64,000 nucleotides of DNA from Chitinophagaceae bacterium (GTDB lineage Bacteria; Bacteroidota; Bacteroidia; Chitinophagales; Chitinophagaceae): positions 1-64,000 of the forward strand of contig PMSV01000019.1 of the NCBI GenBank assembly GCA_003168265.1, read 5' to 3'. Of this stretch, positions 10 through 9,817 are shown in pieces. The position numbers were made by a program, and so were the translations under genes. The notes below the pieces were generated by a model. That model did no database searches, was not told the origin of the DNA, and saw only the letters and a list, made by a program, of their open reading frames with translations. Each line of letters begins with the position of its first letter. Position 1 is the first letter of the stretch.

Positions 10-906
10 TTAGAGGCTTACAGCAATAGAATCAAACCAGCTCCCACCGCGGACGTTCTGCAGACTAATTTTCTCCCAGCCTACTGCAGATATTGCGTCC
101 ATCTGTGCCAAAAGCAAAGCCGGATATGGAATTTTATCTAGCAACTCAGGATATGGAATTTTCAGTTGCGTTATCATTGCAGGCCAGAGAAGCGTCACAT
201 ACGAGACATGTTCAGGGAATTCATTTGTCGCTGGAAAGGAGTCACATATCAAGCCACACAATGAGCCCTCTTCATTAAAAACCGGGCCACCGCTCATTCC
301 GCCCTCAAATTGGGCATCTGTTTGGAAACAAGGAAAGTTCAAACGGACACTATCCCTTCTTTCTGGAAATATTTCAACCACCTTGCCAATTGTGGTTGCA
401 GCCGAGTTGTCCCAATGCAATGAAGTTCCTTGCTCCCCGACCGAAATCTTACTGGTAGAATTATGAAAGCCGAAACCGACAATGCGTGCGCCAACTGAAG
501 GCAGATTTAAATCGATTTTACACTTTTTCCAACTGTAATCGGCAGACTCATTATTAGCGGAAAGCACATATAAAAACGCGATATCGCTTTGAAGGCAAAA
601 ATAAATTTCATACGCTCTCCAAACATATATTTTATTTCCATTTTCGGCATATTGAGCAGCAAAAATATTTACATGGTCAATTGTTTCATTCTCCTTGCCG
701 GTCTTCATATTTTTTTCCAACCTTACATTCGTAAATTGGTTTATAAAATCCTCAATAACATGTCTGGCCGTTATGATTAAATGGGGAGCTATGATCACCC
801 CAGTTCCAGAAACAAAGAAATTATCTTTGTCCTGATAGCCAATAGATACAACAACCTCCATTATTGGTTGATTATTTTTTGTATCAATAAAATTCGAATT
901 ATACAT
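10..906 (-). CDS. Trypsin-like serine protease (S1 fold), cytoplasmic
   Basis: A 298-residue protein with the chymotrypsin-fold triad in order: His49 in TARHV, Asp108 in SDIAF and Ser205 in GGMSGGPV. The family hydrolyses peptide bonds. There is no signal peptide or membrane segment, so unlike the periplasmic DegP/HtrA proteases it should act in the cytoplasm, and no PDZ domain follows the protease domain. It is the last gene of a minus-strand run (zinc ribbon, HEPN protein, protease) after an 87-bp gap. Stand-alone intracellular trypsin-like proteases often sit in bacterial conflict loci, which suggests activation by a partner; this is inference. Family assignment is firm, substrate unknown. 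Confidence 0.85.
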   Translation of the reverse strand: MYNSNFIDTKNNQPIMEVVVSIGYQDKDNFFVSGTGVIIAPHLIITARHVIEDFINQFTNVRLEKNMKTGKENETIDHVNIFAAQYAENGNKIYVWRAYEIYFCLQSDIAFLYVLSANNESADYSWKKCKIDLNLPSVGARIVGFGFHNSTSKISVGEQGTSLHWDNSAATTIGKVVEIFPERRDSVRLNFPCFQTDAQFEGGMSGGPVFNEEGSLCGLICDSFPATNEFPEHVSYVTLLWPAMITQLKIPYPELLDKIPYPALLLAQMDAISAVGWEKISLQNVRGGSWFDSIAVSL

Positions 907-993
907 ACACTTGGAAATAGACCAATAAATATCTTCTGCAATTATTTTAATGAGCCATTGAAGACATGTAAAGATTAATCAGTTAATCGCAAT

Positions 994-1785
994 CTAAGAC
1001 TGAGTGACCTGCTTGCACCAATCCTTAAAATGCAACACTACACGATCAAAATCATCGTTAGATGGAAGTACCCCGTTGTGAGCGATGATATTTCTAACCT
1101 TCTCTAATTCCTCAAGCCTCAGTTCGACAAATTTCATTTCATCAAAAAAGCTTTTAAAATCCGTCTCAAACTTTCTGATTATTTTTACCAAGTCACCCCA
1201 GTCTAGATAATACAATGGCGATAGGGAGCCTCTAGGGCTAAGCCATTTATTTTTAGCTTCTTTTTCTTTTCTCTCTTTTATTTTTTTTTCAAGCTCAGCA
1301 TTTTTTGCTTTATCCCACCAATTACTACCGATTTTTTTTTCTAAAATATCAATTATGAATTTACGAACGGAATTTTCTAGGCAATGTAGAATTATGTATA
1401 GACCAGCCATCTTTTTTGCATCCTCGATGTCAGTAGGGCTAAGAAATGGGGTGATCTTAATATTTGCCCTTTCTGTTATTGAGATTTCTTTTTCTAAATG
1501 AGGCAAATACAATTTATTTAATTCTTCAAGAGCTTTTCTGTTTAATTTATATTTATCATCAGAGCCTTTAGCAACTCTATTGCTTTTATTCAAATCTTTT
1601 TTTAAATAAGTTGAATTATATAATGATAGATCAGATTGAGCAAAGTAGTTGTTTATCTCCTTTAAAGTGATTTCATTTTTCTTGATTTTATATTGATGAA
1701 ACCACATAAACGCAATAGCCACGTCAAGCTTTGACGATTGTTCGGAAACTTTCGCAACTTCACAAAACTCATTAAATACGCCCAT
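994..1785 (-). CDS. Swt1-type HEPN domain protein with N-terminal wHTH-like region
   Basis: A 263-residue protein. The C-terminal half is helical and carries the HEPN RNase signature R-x4-H as RNIIAHN (Arg231, His236). Residues about 18-95 resemble a winged helix, with a stretch like IAFMWFHQYK that has a counterpart in the upstream zinc-ribbon protein. HEPN proteins are commonly metal-independent RNases in toxin-antitoxin or abortive systems. A charged Lys/Glu-rich linker (about 165-180) separates the parts. Its ATG overlaps the TAA of the upstream gene by one base (TAATG), indicating coupled translation. The HEPN call is well supported by the motif; RNase activity and targets are inferred. 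Confidence 0.7.
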   Translation of the reverse strand: MGVFNEFCEVAKVSEQSSKLDVAIAFMWFHQYKIKKNEITLKEINNYFAQSDLSLYNSTYLKKDLNKSNRVAKGSDDKYKLNRKALEELNKLYLPHLEKEISITERANIKITPFLSPTDIEDAKKMAGLYIILHCLENSVRKFIIDILEKKIGSNWWDKAKNAELEKKIKERKEKEAKNKWLSPRGSLSPLYYLDWGDLVKIIRKFETDFKSFFDEMKFVELRLEELEKVRNIIAHNGVLPSNDDFDRVVLHFKDWCKQVTQS

Positions 1786-2576
1786 TACTTTGACTTTTCG
1801 TTTTTGCTTTTATCTTTGGTTTTCTTAGCTCTGGATTGTGTCCCTATTTGCCATTTGTCTTTAGCTTCGGCGCTAAATATTTCTGACACATAAGTTCTTG
1901 CCAATTCAATGCCTGGCGCTTTGATTTGCACAAAGTCTCCATCAATGCCTATTTGTGGATTATTAGCAAGCCAAAATCTAAAATTCCCATCCTCGACACT
2001 TGCGCTATCGACGATTGTTGTAAGGTCTCGCCTCGGCACAGATTCCACTCCAAGCAAATATTTGTGATAAAGAAATATTATTGCTAGCCGTATAGCATAA
2101 TCTCTTTTCGATTTTGCCTTAAGCCTCGTTTCAACTAAAGTCGCCTTATCGTTATCAATTTTTATAATTTTCTTCAACTGGTCAATTTCCGGATTATTTG
2201 CTCCTTTTTCATCCAGTATTTCTGCAACAACATCTTCAGTCTTAGTTGAGTCTATTGCTGGTGGCAGTCCATTTAAAGATCTAATTTTAGTGCCTGAAAT
2301 CCTGTTCGCTAAAATTACTCCGAATGCCTCGCTTATATTATTTCCAATTGTGTCCGTAAAAGCAGCCTTGAACGTTCTGGTCGATCTCGTCTCAGAAAAA
2401 TCAATGGTGTTAAATGAAGCATTGATTTTTCTCCTTACTTCCTCACCGCATTCGATACAAATAATAGCATCTTTTATAAGCAAGCTGCTACAGTTCTTAC
2501 ATTTGAATTGTTTCGCACAATTAGGGCAAAAAAAACCTGAATCAGGTAATGCCCCAGAACAGTAAATACATTCCAT
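1785..2576 (-). CDS. Double zinc-ribbon protein, predicted partner of the HEPN gene
   Basis: A 263-residue protein with two N-terminal zinc ribbons: Cys3/Cys6 with Cys17/Cys20, and Cys26/Cys29 with Cys40/Cys43. The middle is low in recognisable motifs. Residues about 165-240 (IIFLYHKY onward) look like the winged-helix region of the next gene. The C-terminus is Lys-rich. Zinc ribbons usually bind nucleic acid or act as recruitment modules. One-base overlap with the HEPN gene argues for a stoichiometric pair, possibly a regulator or sensor with a toxin. The gene begins a three-gene minus-strand operon. No family name is recognised beyond the ribbons; function is inferred from context. Confidence 0.6.
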   Translation of the reverse strand: MECIYCSGALPDSGFFCPNCAKQFKCKNCSSLLIKDAIICIECGEEVRRKINASFNTIDFSETRSTRTFKAAFTDTIGNNISEAFGVILANRISGTKIRSLNGLPPAIDSTKTEDVVAEILDEKGANNPEIDQLKKIIKIDNDKATLVETRLKAKSKRDYAIRLAIIFLYHKYLLGVESVPRRDLTTIVDSASVEDGNFRFWLANNPQIGIDGDFVQIKAPGIELARTYVSEIFSAEAKDKWQIGTQSRAKKTKDKSKNEKSK

Positions 2577-2769
2577 AAAAAAATATTTTAAGAGTTGGTG
2601 ATTTGCTCAAAAACTGACTATCGCCATCATTACTAGTATCCCAGAGTCCATAATTTGAACAAAAATGAATAATTTTGAACTCTGCAATTTATAGACAAAA
2701 TCCGCCTCGGTCTGTCGCACAGATTGTCCACAAAAGCATTTTTTGTATAATTTTGATAGCAGTAAACAT

Positions 2770-4053
2770 ATGCTCGTAAATTTTTCCCTTGGTAATTTCT
2801 TGTCTTTTAAAGATGTACAGATTCTGAATCTTGTGCCAGAAAGTCTGAAGGATTTAGAAGAAAATTTGCATACCCCATTTTTTTATGACCATAATACAAA
2901 ATTGCTTAAATCGATTGCGATTTATGGCCATAACTCTCATGGAAAATCCAATTTGCTAAAGGGTTTTCAATTTTTTCAACACTTTGTTTTTAATTCATTT
3001 GCATTAGGCCAGTCGAACAATCGGATTGAGACTAAGCCCTTTCTCTTAAATCCTTCGACGGAGGAAAAGCCAAGTTTTTTCGAGATTACTTTTTTATTAA
3101 AGGAAACAAAATACCGTTATCATTTTACGTTCAGCGCCACGGAGATCATTGAAGAGAAGTTATATTATTCTGAAGCGAAAGTCCGCGAAAATTATCTGTT
3201 TGAAAGGACGGGGCAAGATTTTAAAATAAGCAAATCCTGGAATAAAGATGCAGACCATAATATCAATAAAGCAATTTATTTTACAAAGCCGCACATCCTG
3301 TTTTTGTCAGTGCTTTTTACGCAGGAAAATATACCACGTGTCCAATCAATTTCCAGTTGGCTAAGCGCAAATCTGGTAATCCCTGATGACTATTTAAAAG
3401 AACTAGTGAAAGCTCGCGCCATTTACTCAGACCCCATGTATAAAGACCTTATATTGAAATTTATTAAAAATGCAGACTTAGGTTTCAAGACAATTTTTGA
3501 TAGAGTTGAGAGTCTATCAAAAAATAAGTTAGATCTTCAAAAAGGCCTGTTGAACATTTGGTTCGAAAAAGAAATAAAAAACTTTGAACTATATGCTTCC
3601 CATGACCTATTTGATGACAATAAAAAAAATATAGGAATCATTGAGTTTGAACTCCTAAAAAGTGAATCAGCAGGCTCATTAAAATATTTCATATTTATCT
3701 GTTTAATATCATACGCGATCAAAAATTCGCAATTAATTTGGGTCGATGAGCTTGATGCAAGATTTCATTCTTCGCTATTAGAAATGCTAGTGCAATCATT
3801 TCATAATCCCAAAATAAATCCTATCAATTCTCAAATGATATTTACAACGCACAATACTGTTTTACTAGATAAAAAATTGAGGAGAGATCAGATGGTTATT
3901 GTCGAAAAAAATAAATTTGGTGAATCGACGATCCAACGAATGCACAGTTCTAAGAAACCAATACGTATCGGTAAGTCGATTGAAAGGGAATACAGACGTG
4001 GAAATTTAGGTGGTGCTTCGAAGAATTTTGAAGGCCCCACATTATTTGATTAG
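2770..4053 (+). CDS. AAA15/OLD-like ATPase (AbiL/RloA type)
   Basis: An ATP-binding protein of about 427 residues from the ATG at 2770. A longer reading frame from a TTG at 2743 is less likely because the family normally begins with Met followed directly by an FxxxNFLSF-type strand, as here. Walker A is GHNSHGKS (residues 53-60 from this start), Walker B is LIWVDELD, and a TTHNTVLLD switch follows, the hallmark of SMC/Rad50-like AAA15 ATPases. The family is linked to abortive infection and restriction accessory loci. It is divergent from the zinc-ribbon operon and has no obvious downstream RloB/TOPRIM partner, so it may act alone. ATPase family assignment is firm, defence role inferred. Confidence 0.75.
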   Translation: MLVNFSLGNFLSFKDVQILNLVPESLKDLEENLHTPFFYDHNTKLLKSIAIYGHNSHGKSNLLKGFQFFQHFVFNSFALGQSNNRIETKPFLLNPSTEEKPSFFEITFLLKETKYRYHFTFSATEIIEEKLYYSEAKVRENYLFERTGQDFKISKSWNKDADHNINKAIYFTKPHILFLSVLFTQENIPRVQSISSWLSANLVIPDDYLKELVKARAIYSDPMYKDLILKFIKNADLGFKTIFDRVESLSKNKLDLQKGLLNIWFEKEIKNFELYASHDLFDDNKKNIGIIEFELLKSESAGSLKYFIFICLISYAIKNSQLIWVDELDARFHSSLLEMLVQSFHNPKINPINSQMIFTTHNTVLLDKKLRRDQMVIVEKNKFGESTIQRMHSSKKPIRIGKSIEREYRRGNLGGASKNFEGPTLFD

Positions 4054-8379: not shown

Positions 8380-8702
8380 AGCTCATAGATTTCATTCATG
8401 CGGAGGCAGATTTCTTCAACCTTGCTAACAACAATTTGTTTGGAAAATCCGGGGGCAGCATGTAGGATTTTGATAGCTGCATTGAGATCCTTTTTCAGAT
8501 CGTTCGCTGCTGACAAAAAGTCTTCCGCAGTCTGGTTGCGGTAAATAATCACAACAGGTTTTTGCAAGAGAATTTTGCGTGCATATTCGCTTAATTTTTT
8601 GCAATTCGTCTCAGAATAGAAGTCGTAAATTTTTTCATATTCGGCAGGCTTCACGCGAAAGCTGATCCAGCTTTTTGGCTTTTTGTTTTCTTCTTTCATC
8701 AC
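8364..8702 (-). CDS. mobA: Mobilisation accessory protein MobA (ribbon-helix-helix type)
   Basis: A 112-residue basic protein. The first 50 residues have the pattern of a ribbon-helix-helix domain (SWISFRVKPAEYEKI followed by an amphipathic helix with LSEYARKIL). The C-terminal half is helical. Bacteroides MobA proteins bind oriT and help load the relaxase. It is the first gene of the mob operon and overlaps mobB by 16 bp. Two adjacent Met codons leave the start uncertain by one residue. oriT should lie close by, most likely upstream (8703-9225). Confidence 0.8.
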   Translation of the reverse strand: MMKEENKKPKSWISFRVKPAEYEKIYDFYSETNCKKLSEYARKILLQKPVVIIYRNQTAEDFLSAANDLKKDLNAAIKILHAAPGFSKQIVVSKVEEICLRMNEIYELWSRK

Positions 8703-9225
8703 ATTTCATTTTCACTTTTATCAACTTAATTATACTGTTCTCTTTCGCGACAAAAATCAATTGTGCAACATTTGGTACACTTCACCCTTCCAAGGGATTT
8801 GCTATGGCTCTAAAATTTACGCATGTGCATTATCGTTATTCCTACGATGGATATTTTCTTGTTTGCCATGAGCAGAATAATCACATCAAAAAATTAAACT
8901 TATGTTCTCTATCAAAGAATATTTTAAATAAATTATTACTAAATTTTCGTTTTGAATTTGAATATTTATTCTATCAGCAAAAAAGAAATAAATTTCATTT
9001 TTAATTGCTGACTAATAGGCAGTACATCAATAAAAATATTTTTTCTCTTACAAAATTAAATGCATCAAGTACGCCAGACAAGATGTTTAACTACTGTATT
9101 GGTTTGCGGTGATTGAAAAATAAAATTATCATTCCTTGCTGCCGCAGGCTCTGCCATTGAATGACCGGAGGGAGATGGCATAAAAAGATTTGTGCGCAGC
9201 ACGCAATTTGGATGTGGGTTAGCTT
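8703..9225. other. Non-coding region upstream of mobA, candidate oriT
   Basis: No credible gene. It contains a short inverted repeat at 8785-8796 (CCCTT, two bases, AAGGG) about 85 bp upstream of mobA, next to a TTGTGCAACATTTGG stretch. Position upstream of mobA makes it a candidate relaxosome site, but no nick sequence is recognisable. AT-rich up to about 9090, GC-rich after. Confidence 0.3.
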
Positions 9226-9237
9226 GGCACGGCTAAG

Positions 9238-9286
9238 GCAAGAAATAACTGAAGCAAGGGCTGCGCAGCATAGCGTTATTTCTTGC
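9238..9286. repeat. Hairpin, 12-bp perfect arms
   Basis: Arms GCAAGAAATAAC (9238-9249) and its exact complement (9275-9286). The loop contains the palindrome GCTGCGCAGC (9260-9269). It starts one base after the outer arm of the larger element ends. Confidence 0.8.
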
Positions 9287-9303
9287 AACCCCTTTCGGCG
9301 CTG

Positions 9304-9404
9304 GCTACTTAGCATAATGTGCTTATAAGACTTTTTCGTGCGCGAGCATGCTCGCATAAGCACGGGGAAAAAGCTCTTATAAGTTCACGTTATGTTAATG
9401 TAGC
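9304..9404. repeat. Long imperfect hairpin with palindromic tip
   Basis: Arms begin with GCTAC (9304) and close with GTAGC (9404). Matching blocks include CATAATG opposite CGTTATG, CTTATAAG on both sides, and CTTTTTC (9331-9337) opposite GAAAAAG (9367-9373). The tip holds the perfect 14-bp palindrome GCGAGCATGCTCGC (9342-9355). It spans 101 bp and is nearly continuous. Confidence 0.75.
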
Positions 9405-9422
9405 TCCCGACCGTGGGCAGGC

Positions 9423-9535
9423 TTTGTTGCGGCTGTTGTGCGTTGGCGTGCAGCTCTTTTATTTTTTTTGTGGATTTTGTGCGGAGCGAAAAAAAATGAA
9501 TGTGCTGCGCTGAAGCGTTGGCAAGCCGCAACAAA
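9423..9535. repeat. Hairpin arm pair, 12 bp perfect, 89-base interior
   Basis: TTTGTTGCGGCT at 9423-9434 is exactly complementary to 9524-9535. The interior has long T and A runs (around 9451-9470 and 9488-9497) that can also pair weakly. It nests inside the 14-bp arm pair of the larger element. Confidence 0.7.
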
Positions 9536-9581
9536 ATATCAGGAGGGCGGCAGCGCCGAAAGGGTCTGTGCGGATGGTTCT

Positions 9582-9639
9582 GTGCGTATGAAGAAGTCTT
9601 AGCCGTGCCGGGCGGCGGTTGGGCGATTTCTTCACGCAC
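9582..9639. repeat. Hairpin overlapping the outer right arm
   Basis: GTGCG plus TGAAGAA (9582-9595, with two bulged bases) pairs with TTCTTCA plus CGCAC (9628-9639). The loop contains the right outer arm of the large element, so this hairpin and the outer stem cannot be assumed to form together. That leaves room for alternative folds. Confidence 0.6.
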
Positions 9640-9692
9640 TGAGAACCTTGTGGCTTAAACCGTTAAATAAAATAATACAGAAGGATAACGAG

Positions 9693-9817
9693 CATTTATT
9701 TGCCATACCGATTCTACTCCGTGCAAATATTTTTAAATATTGAACATTAGAAACATAAAGAAATCTGCCGTTTTAGTTAGGCAAAGACGTAATGTATATT
9801 TATGGCTTGTGTGCAAT
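9693..9817 (+). repeat. Diverged 125-bp repeat, copy 1 (carries promoter-like core)
   Basis: Matches 18390-18513 over its whole length with almost no gaps. Shared blocks in order are GCAAATATT, ATTGAACA, GCAAA and TATATTTAT, ending in TTGTGTGCAAT. In this copy the direction of the promoter-like core points into a region with no plus-strand gene, so it looks orphaned. Confidence 0.55.
9781..9803 (+). promoter_or_regulatory. Promoter-like core GCAAA...TATATTTAT, copy 1
   Basis: GCAAA is followed after 9 bases by TATATTTAT. The same arrangement occurs at 16182-16203 and 18478-18499, each time 33-51 bp before a plus-strand gene there. The second box resembles the Bacteroidota minus-7 element (TAnnTTT). 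Here no gene follows directly. Confidence 0.35.

What the first reader, a model, noticed from the sequence alone, without database searches (positions are those of the whole stretch)
9226..9639. Multi-branched palindromic element next to the mob operon
Seen: perfect 12-bp outer arms, perfect 14-bp inner arms, three enclosed hairpins and one overlapping hairpin, all within about 410 bp of GC-rich DNA. The right outer arm can pair in two ways, so alternative folds exist. No protein gene explains it. It lies upstream of mobA on a mobilisable segment. It may be a transfer or replication origin, a single-strand recombination site, or a large structured RNA. I know of no named family with this layout.
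Basis: partly seen in the sequence, partly recalled or inferred. Interest (0 to 1): 0.75.

Follow-up and report, generated by a model that had tools for sequence, protein, structure and literature searches.

The report
Orphan folded site of mobile elements
The palindromic stretch is a stand-alone copy of a large folded structure that, elsewhere in the same bacterial phylum, sits beside paired recombinase genes of mobile units, some of which carry swappable toxin tips.

Summary
It is not tied to the mob operon. Its core hairpin occurs in 29 of 394 genomes of the same family, the own one included. In nine aligned copies (one cut at its left end) 26 of 69 base pairs show two-sided compensatory changes (0 of 500 shuffles).

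Elsewhere the structure lies 3' of a pair of tyrosine recombinases. Of 80 loci fetched with the second recombinase, 61 have one or two core hairpins; 0 of 82 lie upstream of it. Gene order: ATPase (sometimes joined to a primase) - YR1 - YR2 - site(s). YR1 keeps all six catalytic residues in 75 of 75; YR2 lacks the box I arginine in 62 of 75. In Arenibacter two 6,756-bp units are inserted exactly at TATTATCCNTTTGGG in a cytochrome P450 gene, fusing it to an RHS tip.

The window copy is an orphan: no such recombinase in the window, only a fragment and two distant Xer-like proteins in the genome. Best reading: a cis-acting site, folded as a single strand, for recombination and/or replication of such units. 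ssDNA versus RNA, and the exact step, stay unproven.

The parts
9139..9195 (+). Left conserved block with a short TGCCAT...ATGGCA hairpin, shared with recombinase-linked copies; by eye the likeness begins at 9128
   Evidence: 83% with L034 and L083 over window -160 to -104 from the core start 9299; sequences
9226..9237 (+). P1 left (outer arm) GGCACGGCTAAG
   Evidence: I7, 100%; homologues covary: AGTACGGCT with AGCCGTAC in L037, GGAACGGCT with AGCCGTTC in L096 and L100; helix 1
9598..9609 (+). P1 right (outer arm) CTTAGCCGTGCC
9238..9286 (+). P2 hairpin, arms 9238-9249/9275-9286
   Evidence: I8, 100%; L034, L035, L037 and L038 fold a hairpin of other sequence at this place; not every copy does in its best fold
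9290..9303 (+). P3 left (inner arm)
   Evidence: I4, 100%; 5 of 11 aligned pairs have two-sided changes (helix 2)
9551..9564 (+). P3 right (inner arm)
9304..9404 (+). P4 core hairpin: 9304-9308/9400-9404, 9309-9321/9386-9398, 9322-9330/9375-9383 and inner helices, with a 1-nt (9399) and a 2-nt (9384-9385) bulge on the 3' strand; the most conserved part, basis of covariance models R1 and R2
   Evidence: found in 29 of 394 family genomes, own included; 17 of 26 pairs compensated; like bulges in most of the 32 rows printed, by eye
9407..9550 (+). P5/P6 long hairpin: 9407-9409/9548-9550, 9423-9434/9524-9535, 9448-9454/9504-9510, 9458-9469/9489-9500
   Evidence: helices 7 and 9
9565..9597 (+). P7 position: small hairpin in homologues, weak in the window (9567-9574/9579-9586)
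   Evidence: helix 10 (86% of cells paired)
9610..9647 (+). Right flank, alternative pairing 9576-9598/9625-9647; resembles the stretch that leads into the YR2 stop codon in L038
   Evidence: I2, 74%; resemblance by eye

Best explanation
Window 9128-9640 is a solitary copy of a conserved cis-acting structure (main stems P1-P5/P6 around a core hairpin P4) that belongs to Bacteroidota mobile units. A complete unit carries an ATPase gene (in some joined to a DnaG-like primase), a catalytically complete tyrosine recombinase (YR1), a degenerate partner (YR2) and then one or two of these structures, often in opposite orientation. In one type the unit sits at TATTATCCNTTTGG and its left end supplies a new RHS C-terminal tip. 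Shown: the structure, its covariation, its place 3' of YR2, and, in Arenibacter, the exact insertion. Inferred: when the unit's DNA is single-stranded (replication or transfer), the strand folds, the YR pair recognises the core hairpin, only YR1 cuts, and the one-strand junction is resolved by replication, helped by the unit's own primase/ATPase; it would work like integron attC recombination without being attC. The window copy lacks these genes and would be acted on only in trans, or be a relic.
For: Covariation: 26 of 69 pairs changed on both sides, 94.9% of cells paired; 0 of 500 shuffles reach this (1 of 500 for pair types); slid versions at most 10 pairs. Placement: 82 sites in 61 of 80 YR2 loci, 0 of 82 upstream, although 347,432 of 586,356 bases lie there (R2 was partly built from these loci). 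With R1, built from 7 sequences, 45 of 79 loci match at E<=0.01 (my count; 2 of the 45 are among its 7 sequences). YR1 in 79 of 80, ATPase gene in 70 of 80. YR1 complete in 75 of 75, YR2 in 6 of 75. DnaG-like primase (CHC2, Toprim) joined to the ATPase in L201, Toprim in L186. Of 15 '+' sites in loci with the TATTATCC word downstream, 13 end 138-350 bp before it (three pairs are near-identical twins). One-sided bulges in P4, as attC has extrahelical bases (PMC8946536, passages). Mobility: two Arenibacter units split a P450 gene and fuse it to an RHS core domain; L094/L099 97% identical over 3.5 kb in two genera with unlike flanks.
Against: The crossover word of the integrated units lies outside the hairpins, so the hairpin need not be a strand-exchange site. 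18 of 18 copies fold better on the + strand, but they are G+T-rich; in strand-neutral counts GT to AC mismatches were 1 to 2 (stems of 5), 7 to 10 (stems of 4) and 166 to 97 (stems of 3), against 119.5 to 74.5 in shuffled sequence for the last, so there is no independent strand signal. The whole P1-P7 layout was shown only in nine close copies. In ten other loci with a '+' site, a stem enclosing the core was found in 7, one of them a single pair, and in L173 the best fold does not form the core hairpin at all. 19 of 80 loci have no detected site; 5 of these have under 1.3 kb after YR2, 14 do not. The 80 loci are a capped list (151 relatives found) and at least four are the seed loci again. The window copy has no recombinase and no exact target word nearby.
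Confidence: 0.5

Rival explanations
1. The structure is a single-strand replication start (primase/helicase loading site or origin) of the excised unit, not a recombinase site.
For: Gene 1 of L201 is a DnaG-type primase joined to an ATPase, L186 shows Toprim. The integration word lies elsewhere. In 20 of 61 loci two sites lie in opposite orientation, as around a two-way origin.
Against: 17 of the 19 loci without a detected site also have the ATPase gene. The two ATPase proteins tested from other units (L199, L128) show no primase domain. No replication data.
Confidence: 0.25
2. It is a large structured non-coding RNA expressed from the mobile unit (regulatory, or a cofactor of the recombinases).
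For: Very stable RNA fold (z -7.3), compensatory changes, G-U pairs on the + strand (32 G-T versus 3 A-C cells in P4, on an alignment fitted to that strand).
Against: No Rfam family. 54 of 82 sites lie antisense to the recombinase genes. A strand-neutral count shows no G-U excess beyond composition. No expression data.
Confidence: 0.15
3. It is a double-stranded palindrome: inverted protein-binding sites or a terminator/insulator at the end of the unit, with no single-stranded role.
For: Palindromy alone would give compensatory changes; strand-neutral mismatch counts show no strand preference.
Against: Nested pairing over 240-360 bp (P1, P3) and one-sided bulges in P4 are not needed for ordinary dsDNA sites.
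Confidence: 0.08
4. It is the oriT of the adjacent NikA/MobA-type mobilisation operon.
For: It lies 426 bp upstream of the NikA-like start at 8702.
Against: Mob proteins in 1 of 39 site loci; site near 1 of 30 relaxase loci; both times the window itself. Relaxase relatives are common (108 of 294 genomes).
Confidence: 0.02

Closest known systems
Integron attC sites (and IntI)
   Same: Imperfect palindrome with a conserved stem, one-sided extra bases and a variable end; tied to a tyrosine recombinase; carried by mobile units. RYYYAAC occurs in the left arm of 16 of 39 copies, 2% in shuffled arms
   Different: About 500 bp and multi-branched; GTTRRRY in the right arm of 0 of 39 copies, and neither word in the window; two XerC/D-like recombinases plus an ATPase or primase gene instead of IntI; the integration word lies elsewhere
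CTXphi-type attP of Xer-exploiting elements (recalled, not tested)
   Same: Folded ssDNA hairpin that forms arms for two different Xer-like recombinases, only one of which cuts
   Different: Here the recombinases are encoded by the unit; the host-dif pattern tried gave no clear host site
RIT elements (recombinase in trio)
   Same: Adjacent tyrosine recombinase genes; a palindromic sequence at the ends (PMC3414803, passages)
   Different: Two recombinases here, with an ATPase or primase gene first, and structures of about 500 bp rather than a 28-29 bp repeat
GInts (ginABCD islands)
   Same: Site-specific tyrosine recombinase islands; one of the set (GinC) also lacks the first catalytic arginine (PMC5385486, passages)
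   Different: Three recombinases plus GinD; 'palindrom' and 'inverted repeat' do not occur in that paper's main text
RHS displaced C-terminal tips
   Same: Arrays of orphan RHS tips in Ornithobacterium hominis (PMC6421346 and PMC13183296, passages)
   Different: The passages read name no recombinase-borne unit, target word or structure

Membership tests
The recombinase-linked site family described here | P4 core hairpin by covariance model or sequence | tested here: met
   window 115 bits with R1 (window is in its training set); independent blastn matches such as L008, 71% over about 158 bp, E 2.7e-9
The recombinase-linked site family described here | Lies 3' of a YR1-YR2 pair | tested here: not met
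   No YR1, YR2 or ATPase similarity in the 64-kb window; own genome has a YR2 fragment (C16) and two distant full-length Xer-like proteins, on other contigs. The window copy is an orphan
Integron attC | GTTRRRY core in the right arm (consensus recalled) | tested here: not met
   0 of 39 canonical copies; RYYYAAC in the left arm of 16 of 39, not in the window
Integron attC | Adjacent integron integrase IntI | tested here: not met
   For the L037 pair the integron integrase model scores 35 (YR2) and 119 bits (YR1) against a cut-off of 265
oriT of the adjacent mob operon | Conserved next to relaxase homologues | tested here: not met
   1 of 30 relaxase loci, the window's own
Any Rfam 15 RNA family | Score above the curated gathering score | tested here: not met
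   0 in the window; five sub-threshold matches in 9100-9700
RIT element | Three tandem tyrosine recombinases | tested here: not met
   The units examined have two, preceded by an ATPase or primase gene
Protein-coding gene | A frame that stays open in homologues | tested here: not met
   At least one stop in all 6 frames of all 9 copies over about 385 bp; 95 of 111 indel runs relative to the window are not multiples of 3; longest open stretch 107 codons; no Pfam hit for the two window ORFs
Folded-ssDNA recombination site | Bound and cut by the recombinases as a folded single strand | not testable with these tools
   needs biochemistry

The most novel reading that the evidence does not exclude
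A new kind of single-strand mobile element: an asymmetric recombinase pair (one catalytic, one a degenerate partner) that recognises a 400-500-nt multi-branched DNA fold, makes one strand exchange only, and finishes the job with its own primase/ATPase. One branch spreads through Bacteroidota by landing on a 14-bp DNA word that codes for YYPFG in RHS genes and so swaps their toxin tips; orphan copies of the fold, such as the window's, would mark cassettes that can be moved in trans.
Probability: 0.25. Interest if true: 0.92.

Novelty: new variant of a known kind. Interest (0 to 1): 0.7.

Why it matters
To my knowledge only integrons and some phages recombine a folded single strand with tyrosine recombinases. 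A further system with a much larger fold, a degenerate partner recombinase and, in some units, its own primase would show how such systems arise. The units also suggest a concrete mechanism, down to the target base pairs, for how some Bacteroidota exchange RHS toxin tips, which the passages I read describe as displaced tips without naming a mover (PMC6421346, PMC13183296). Orphan sites would be a handle for finding movable cassettes.

Tried and rejected
Rejected: coding region (but 4 of 9 copies have an open stretch of 99-107 codons on the - strand); oriT; known RNA family; attC membership; plasmid or phage origin of the stretch (no blastn match); other copies in the own genome (the second hit is the palindrome's own complement).

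Led nowhere: host dif pattern with up to 2 mismatches, 16 hits against 29 for the reversed control; the empty site of a group B unit in its genus; repeats at group B ends, only short ones of 7-10 nt; left end of group B units in the window (0 matches); RHS target word in the window (one match with one mismatch, 0.57 expected); mob region in relatives, where the element did not match; recombinase relatives on plasmids and phages, all below 60% identity; fold z-scores for 80 loci timed out. In one search my hand-made P4 pairs were shifted by some columns; I used the RNAalifold structure instead. Many of the short blastn hits (E near 0.01) look like chance or shared hairpin pieces and were not counted; L003, L009, L011, L012 and L015 seem to share one hairpin only and lie near other palindromes (by eye). 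For one search I carried over the matches by hand and merged overlaps; one borderline match (L188 6326-6392, E 0.01, also downstream of YR2) was left out.

Not in print: eight library searches listed no description of the structure or of such units in RHS genes; most subscription journals and all bioRxiv preprints are outside that library.

Full report
Observation. In the window 19 perfect inverted pairs of comparable size were listed, 4 of them here. It is single-copy in the genome, matches no Rfam family and has no blastn match in the plasmid or phage collections.

Homologues. A blastn search of 394 genomes of the same family gave distant but clear relatives (best L008, 71%, E 2.7e-9). They share a core hairpin, for example GGATACTTAACATAATGTGCCTATAGGA ... 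CTATAGGAACACATTATGTTTAAGTAGC. A covariance model of 7 copies (R1) found it in 29 of 394 genomes and 19 of 101 genera, own included. A second model (R2, 41 rows, 2 of them mirror-strand rows) found it in 14 of 296 genomes sampled over the phylum at E<=0.001, one of them the own genome.

Structure. Nine copies, one (L036) cut at its left by a contig end, aligned without structure information (A3) give 69 consensus pairs, 94.9% of cells paired. 26 pairs have two-sided changes; shuffles average 12.6 and 0 of 500 reach 26 (for the count of pair types 1 of 500 does); sliding the partner by 1 to 3 columns gives at most 10. Outer arms, inner arms, core, long hairpin and the small right hairpin all contain compensated pairs. 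In the core alone 17 of 26 pairs are compensated over 56 matches, which include mirror-strand matches and were fitted to the model. In the nine copies each of six frames has at least one stop over about 385 bp, though 4 of 9 copies have an open stretch of 99-107 codons on the - strand, and 95 of 111 indel runs are not multiples of three.

Strand. All 18 copies tested fold better on the window's + strand, and G-U cells outnumber A-C cells in fitted alignments (32 to 3 in P4). Strand-neutral counts show no preference beyond base composition, so I claim no strand from this. One-sided bulges in the core are seen in most of 32 printed rows (by eye), and a GT-rich word (TTGTGYGKTGGC, up to 2 mismatches) occurs 74 times on + and 20 on - over 38 loci, which may again be composition.

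Neighbourhood of the homologues. In 8 of 39 loci (two of them twins in one genome) the site is followed by two tandem tyrosine recombinases; YR2 ends 315-364 bp from the core start in five of them and 940-943 bp in three. Some of the other loci are cut by contig ends. Starting instead from YR2, 80 loci were kept of 151 relatives found, mostly Bacteroidota by title; at least four are the seed loci again. YR1 is upstream in 79 of 80, an ATPase gene in 70 of 80, RHS motifs in 31 of 80. R1 finds the hairpin in 45 of 79 of them at E<=0.01 (counted by me; 2 of those were in its training set). R2, partly built from these loci, finds it in 61 of 80. All 82 sites start after YR2. Patterns from YR2 outward are '-' 32, '-+' 20, '+' 8, '--' 1. 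Of 19 loci without a site, 5 have less than 1.3 kb after YR2.

Proteins. YR1 aligns with XerD and keeps R, K, H, R, H and Y in 75 of 75. YR2 keeps the box I arginine in 13 of 75; its box II histidine is mostly lysine (48 of 75), which alone need not be inactivating; 6 of 75 have R, H or K, R and Y together. The first gene of L201 is a DnaG-like primase (CHC2, Toprim) joined to an ATPase-like part; L186 shows Toprim; L199 and L128 show no primase domain. A recombinase partner without the first arginine is known from GInts, GinC (PMC5385486, passages).

Mobility. In 25 of 80 loci the word TAYTAYCCNTTYGG lies downstream of YR2; in many flavobacterial ones it is preceded by AAAAAAACGCRTAAAC. It codes YYPFG, by eye in RHS-like frames except one; two tested downstream frames (L038, L186) match the RHS core model. 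In Arenibacter G456 three such words lie 6,756 bp apart twice. The outer flanks are the two halves of a cytochrome P450 (Pfam p450 positions 20-405 on the left, 395-436 on the right). The two units agree in 6,755 of 6,756 positions, and the P450 front half is fused in frame to an RHS core domain (652-aa ORF). So the target there is a DNA word, not RHS function. In 13 of 15 cases the '+' site ends 138-350 bp before the word.

A second group (e.g. L084-L101, L039) carries the site near the right end of longer shared stretches with no recombinase. L094 and L099 agree in 97% from -3156 to +381 although they lie in different genera with unlike flanks. Exact ends and mover are not known.

The window copy. 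Homology runs from about 9134 (9128 by eye) to about 9640. The longest alignment is with L038, whose site adjoins YR2 (65% over -165 to +208). No recombinase or ATPase similarity was found in the window. The genome holds a YR2 fragment and two distant Xer-like proteins elsewhere. The copy's pairing is intact, so it is recent, used in trans, or kept for another reason. The mob operon (NikA-like 8702-8364, relaxase 8379-7150, coupling protein 7131-5149, all -) looks like a chance neighbour by two tests.

Mechanism. Shown: conserved fold, position, recombinase asymmetry, one exact insertion. Inferred: the fold acts as a single strand; YR1/YR2 or the primase recognises it; one strand exchange with replicative resolution, as described for attC x attI (PMC8946536, passages). 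That the integration word lies outside the hairpin weakens a simple attC analogy and keeps the replication-start rival alive. The full P1-P7 layout outside the nine close copies is not shown: in ten other loci an enclosing stem was found in 7, the core hairpin in 9.

Verdict. Real, conserved, not described in the libraries searched; identity as a copy of this site family about 0.9, the single-strand recombination role about 0.5.

Noticed in passing
L214 2892-16403 (Arenibacter G456:C21): Two tandem 6,756-bp units split a cytochrome P450 gene at TATTATCCNTTTGGG; the P450 front half is fused in frame to an RHS core domain. The units also carry an ORF6N-domain gene between YR2 and the site.
   Followed up: yes
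L094 and L099, -3156 to +381 from the core: Recombinase-less 3.5-kb units (DUF6266-like and DUF6943-like ORFs, labels recalled) 97% identical in two genera with unlike flanks; mover unknown.
   Followed up: partly
L009 1501-1592, L011 and L012 about 1500-1750, L015, L003: Single shared hairpin (GCACATTT..AAATG..) next to other palindromes, e.g. TAACAAGGTATTGCC...GGCAATACC..AACGTTG in L009, possibly a different repeated palindromic element.
   Followed up: no
L111 and L114 (G308, G347): Weak core-hairpin hits (E 0.0016 and 0.009), ATTATTTAACATAATATTGTTATAGGAC, one per genome in the same genus; could be another element or a resolution site.
   Followed up: no
L050 1501-1857 (G000:C16:61507-61863): Fragment of a YR2-like recombinase (43% over 113 aa) in the window's own genome; the only core-hairpin hits in that genome are the window's.
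   Followed up: partly
window 9117-9129 and 9664-9675: AT-rich near-repeat AAATAAAATnAT on both sides of the element; could be a target duplication or chance.
   Followed up: no
window 10-4053: Accessory genes beside the mob operon: trypsin-like protease, Swt1-type HEPN protein, AAA_21/AbiEii-like ATPase.
   Followed up: no
L036 and L105: By eye, the site's right half runs into an XRE-type regulator gene near RHS-like genes, a possible second insertion spot.
   Followed up: no
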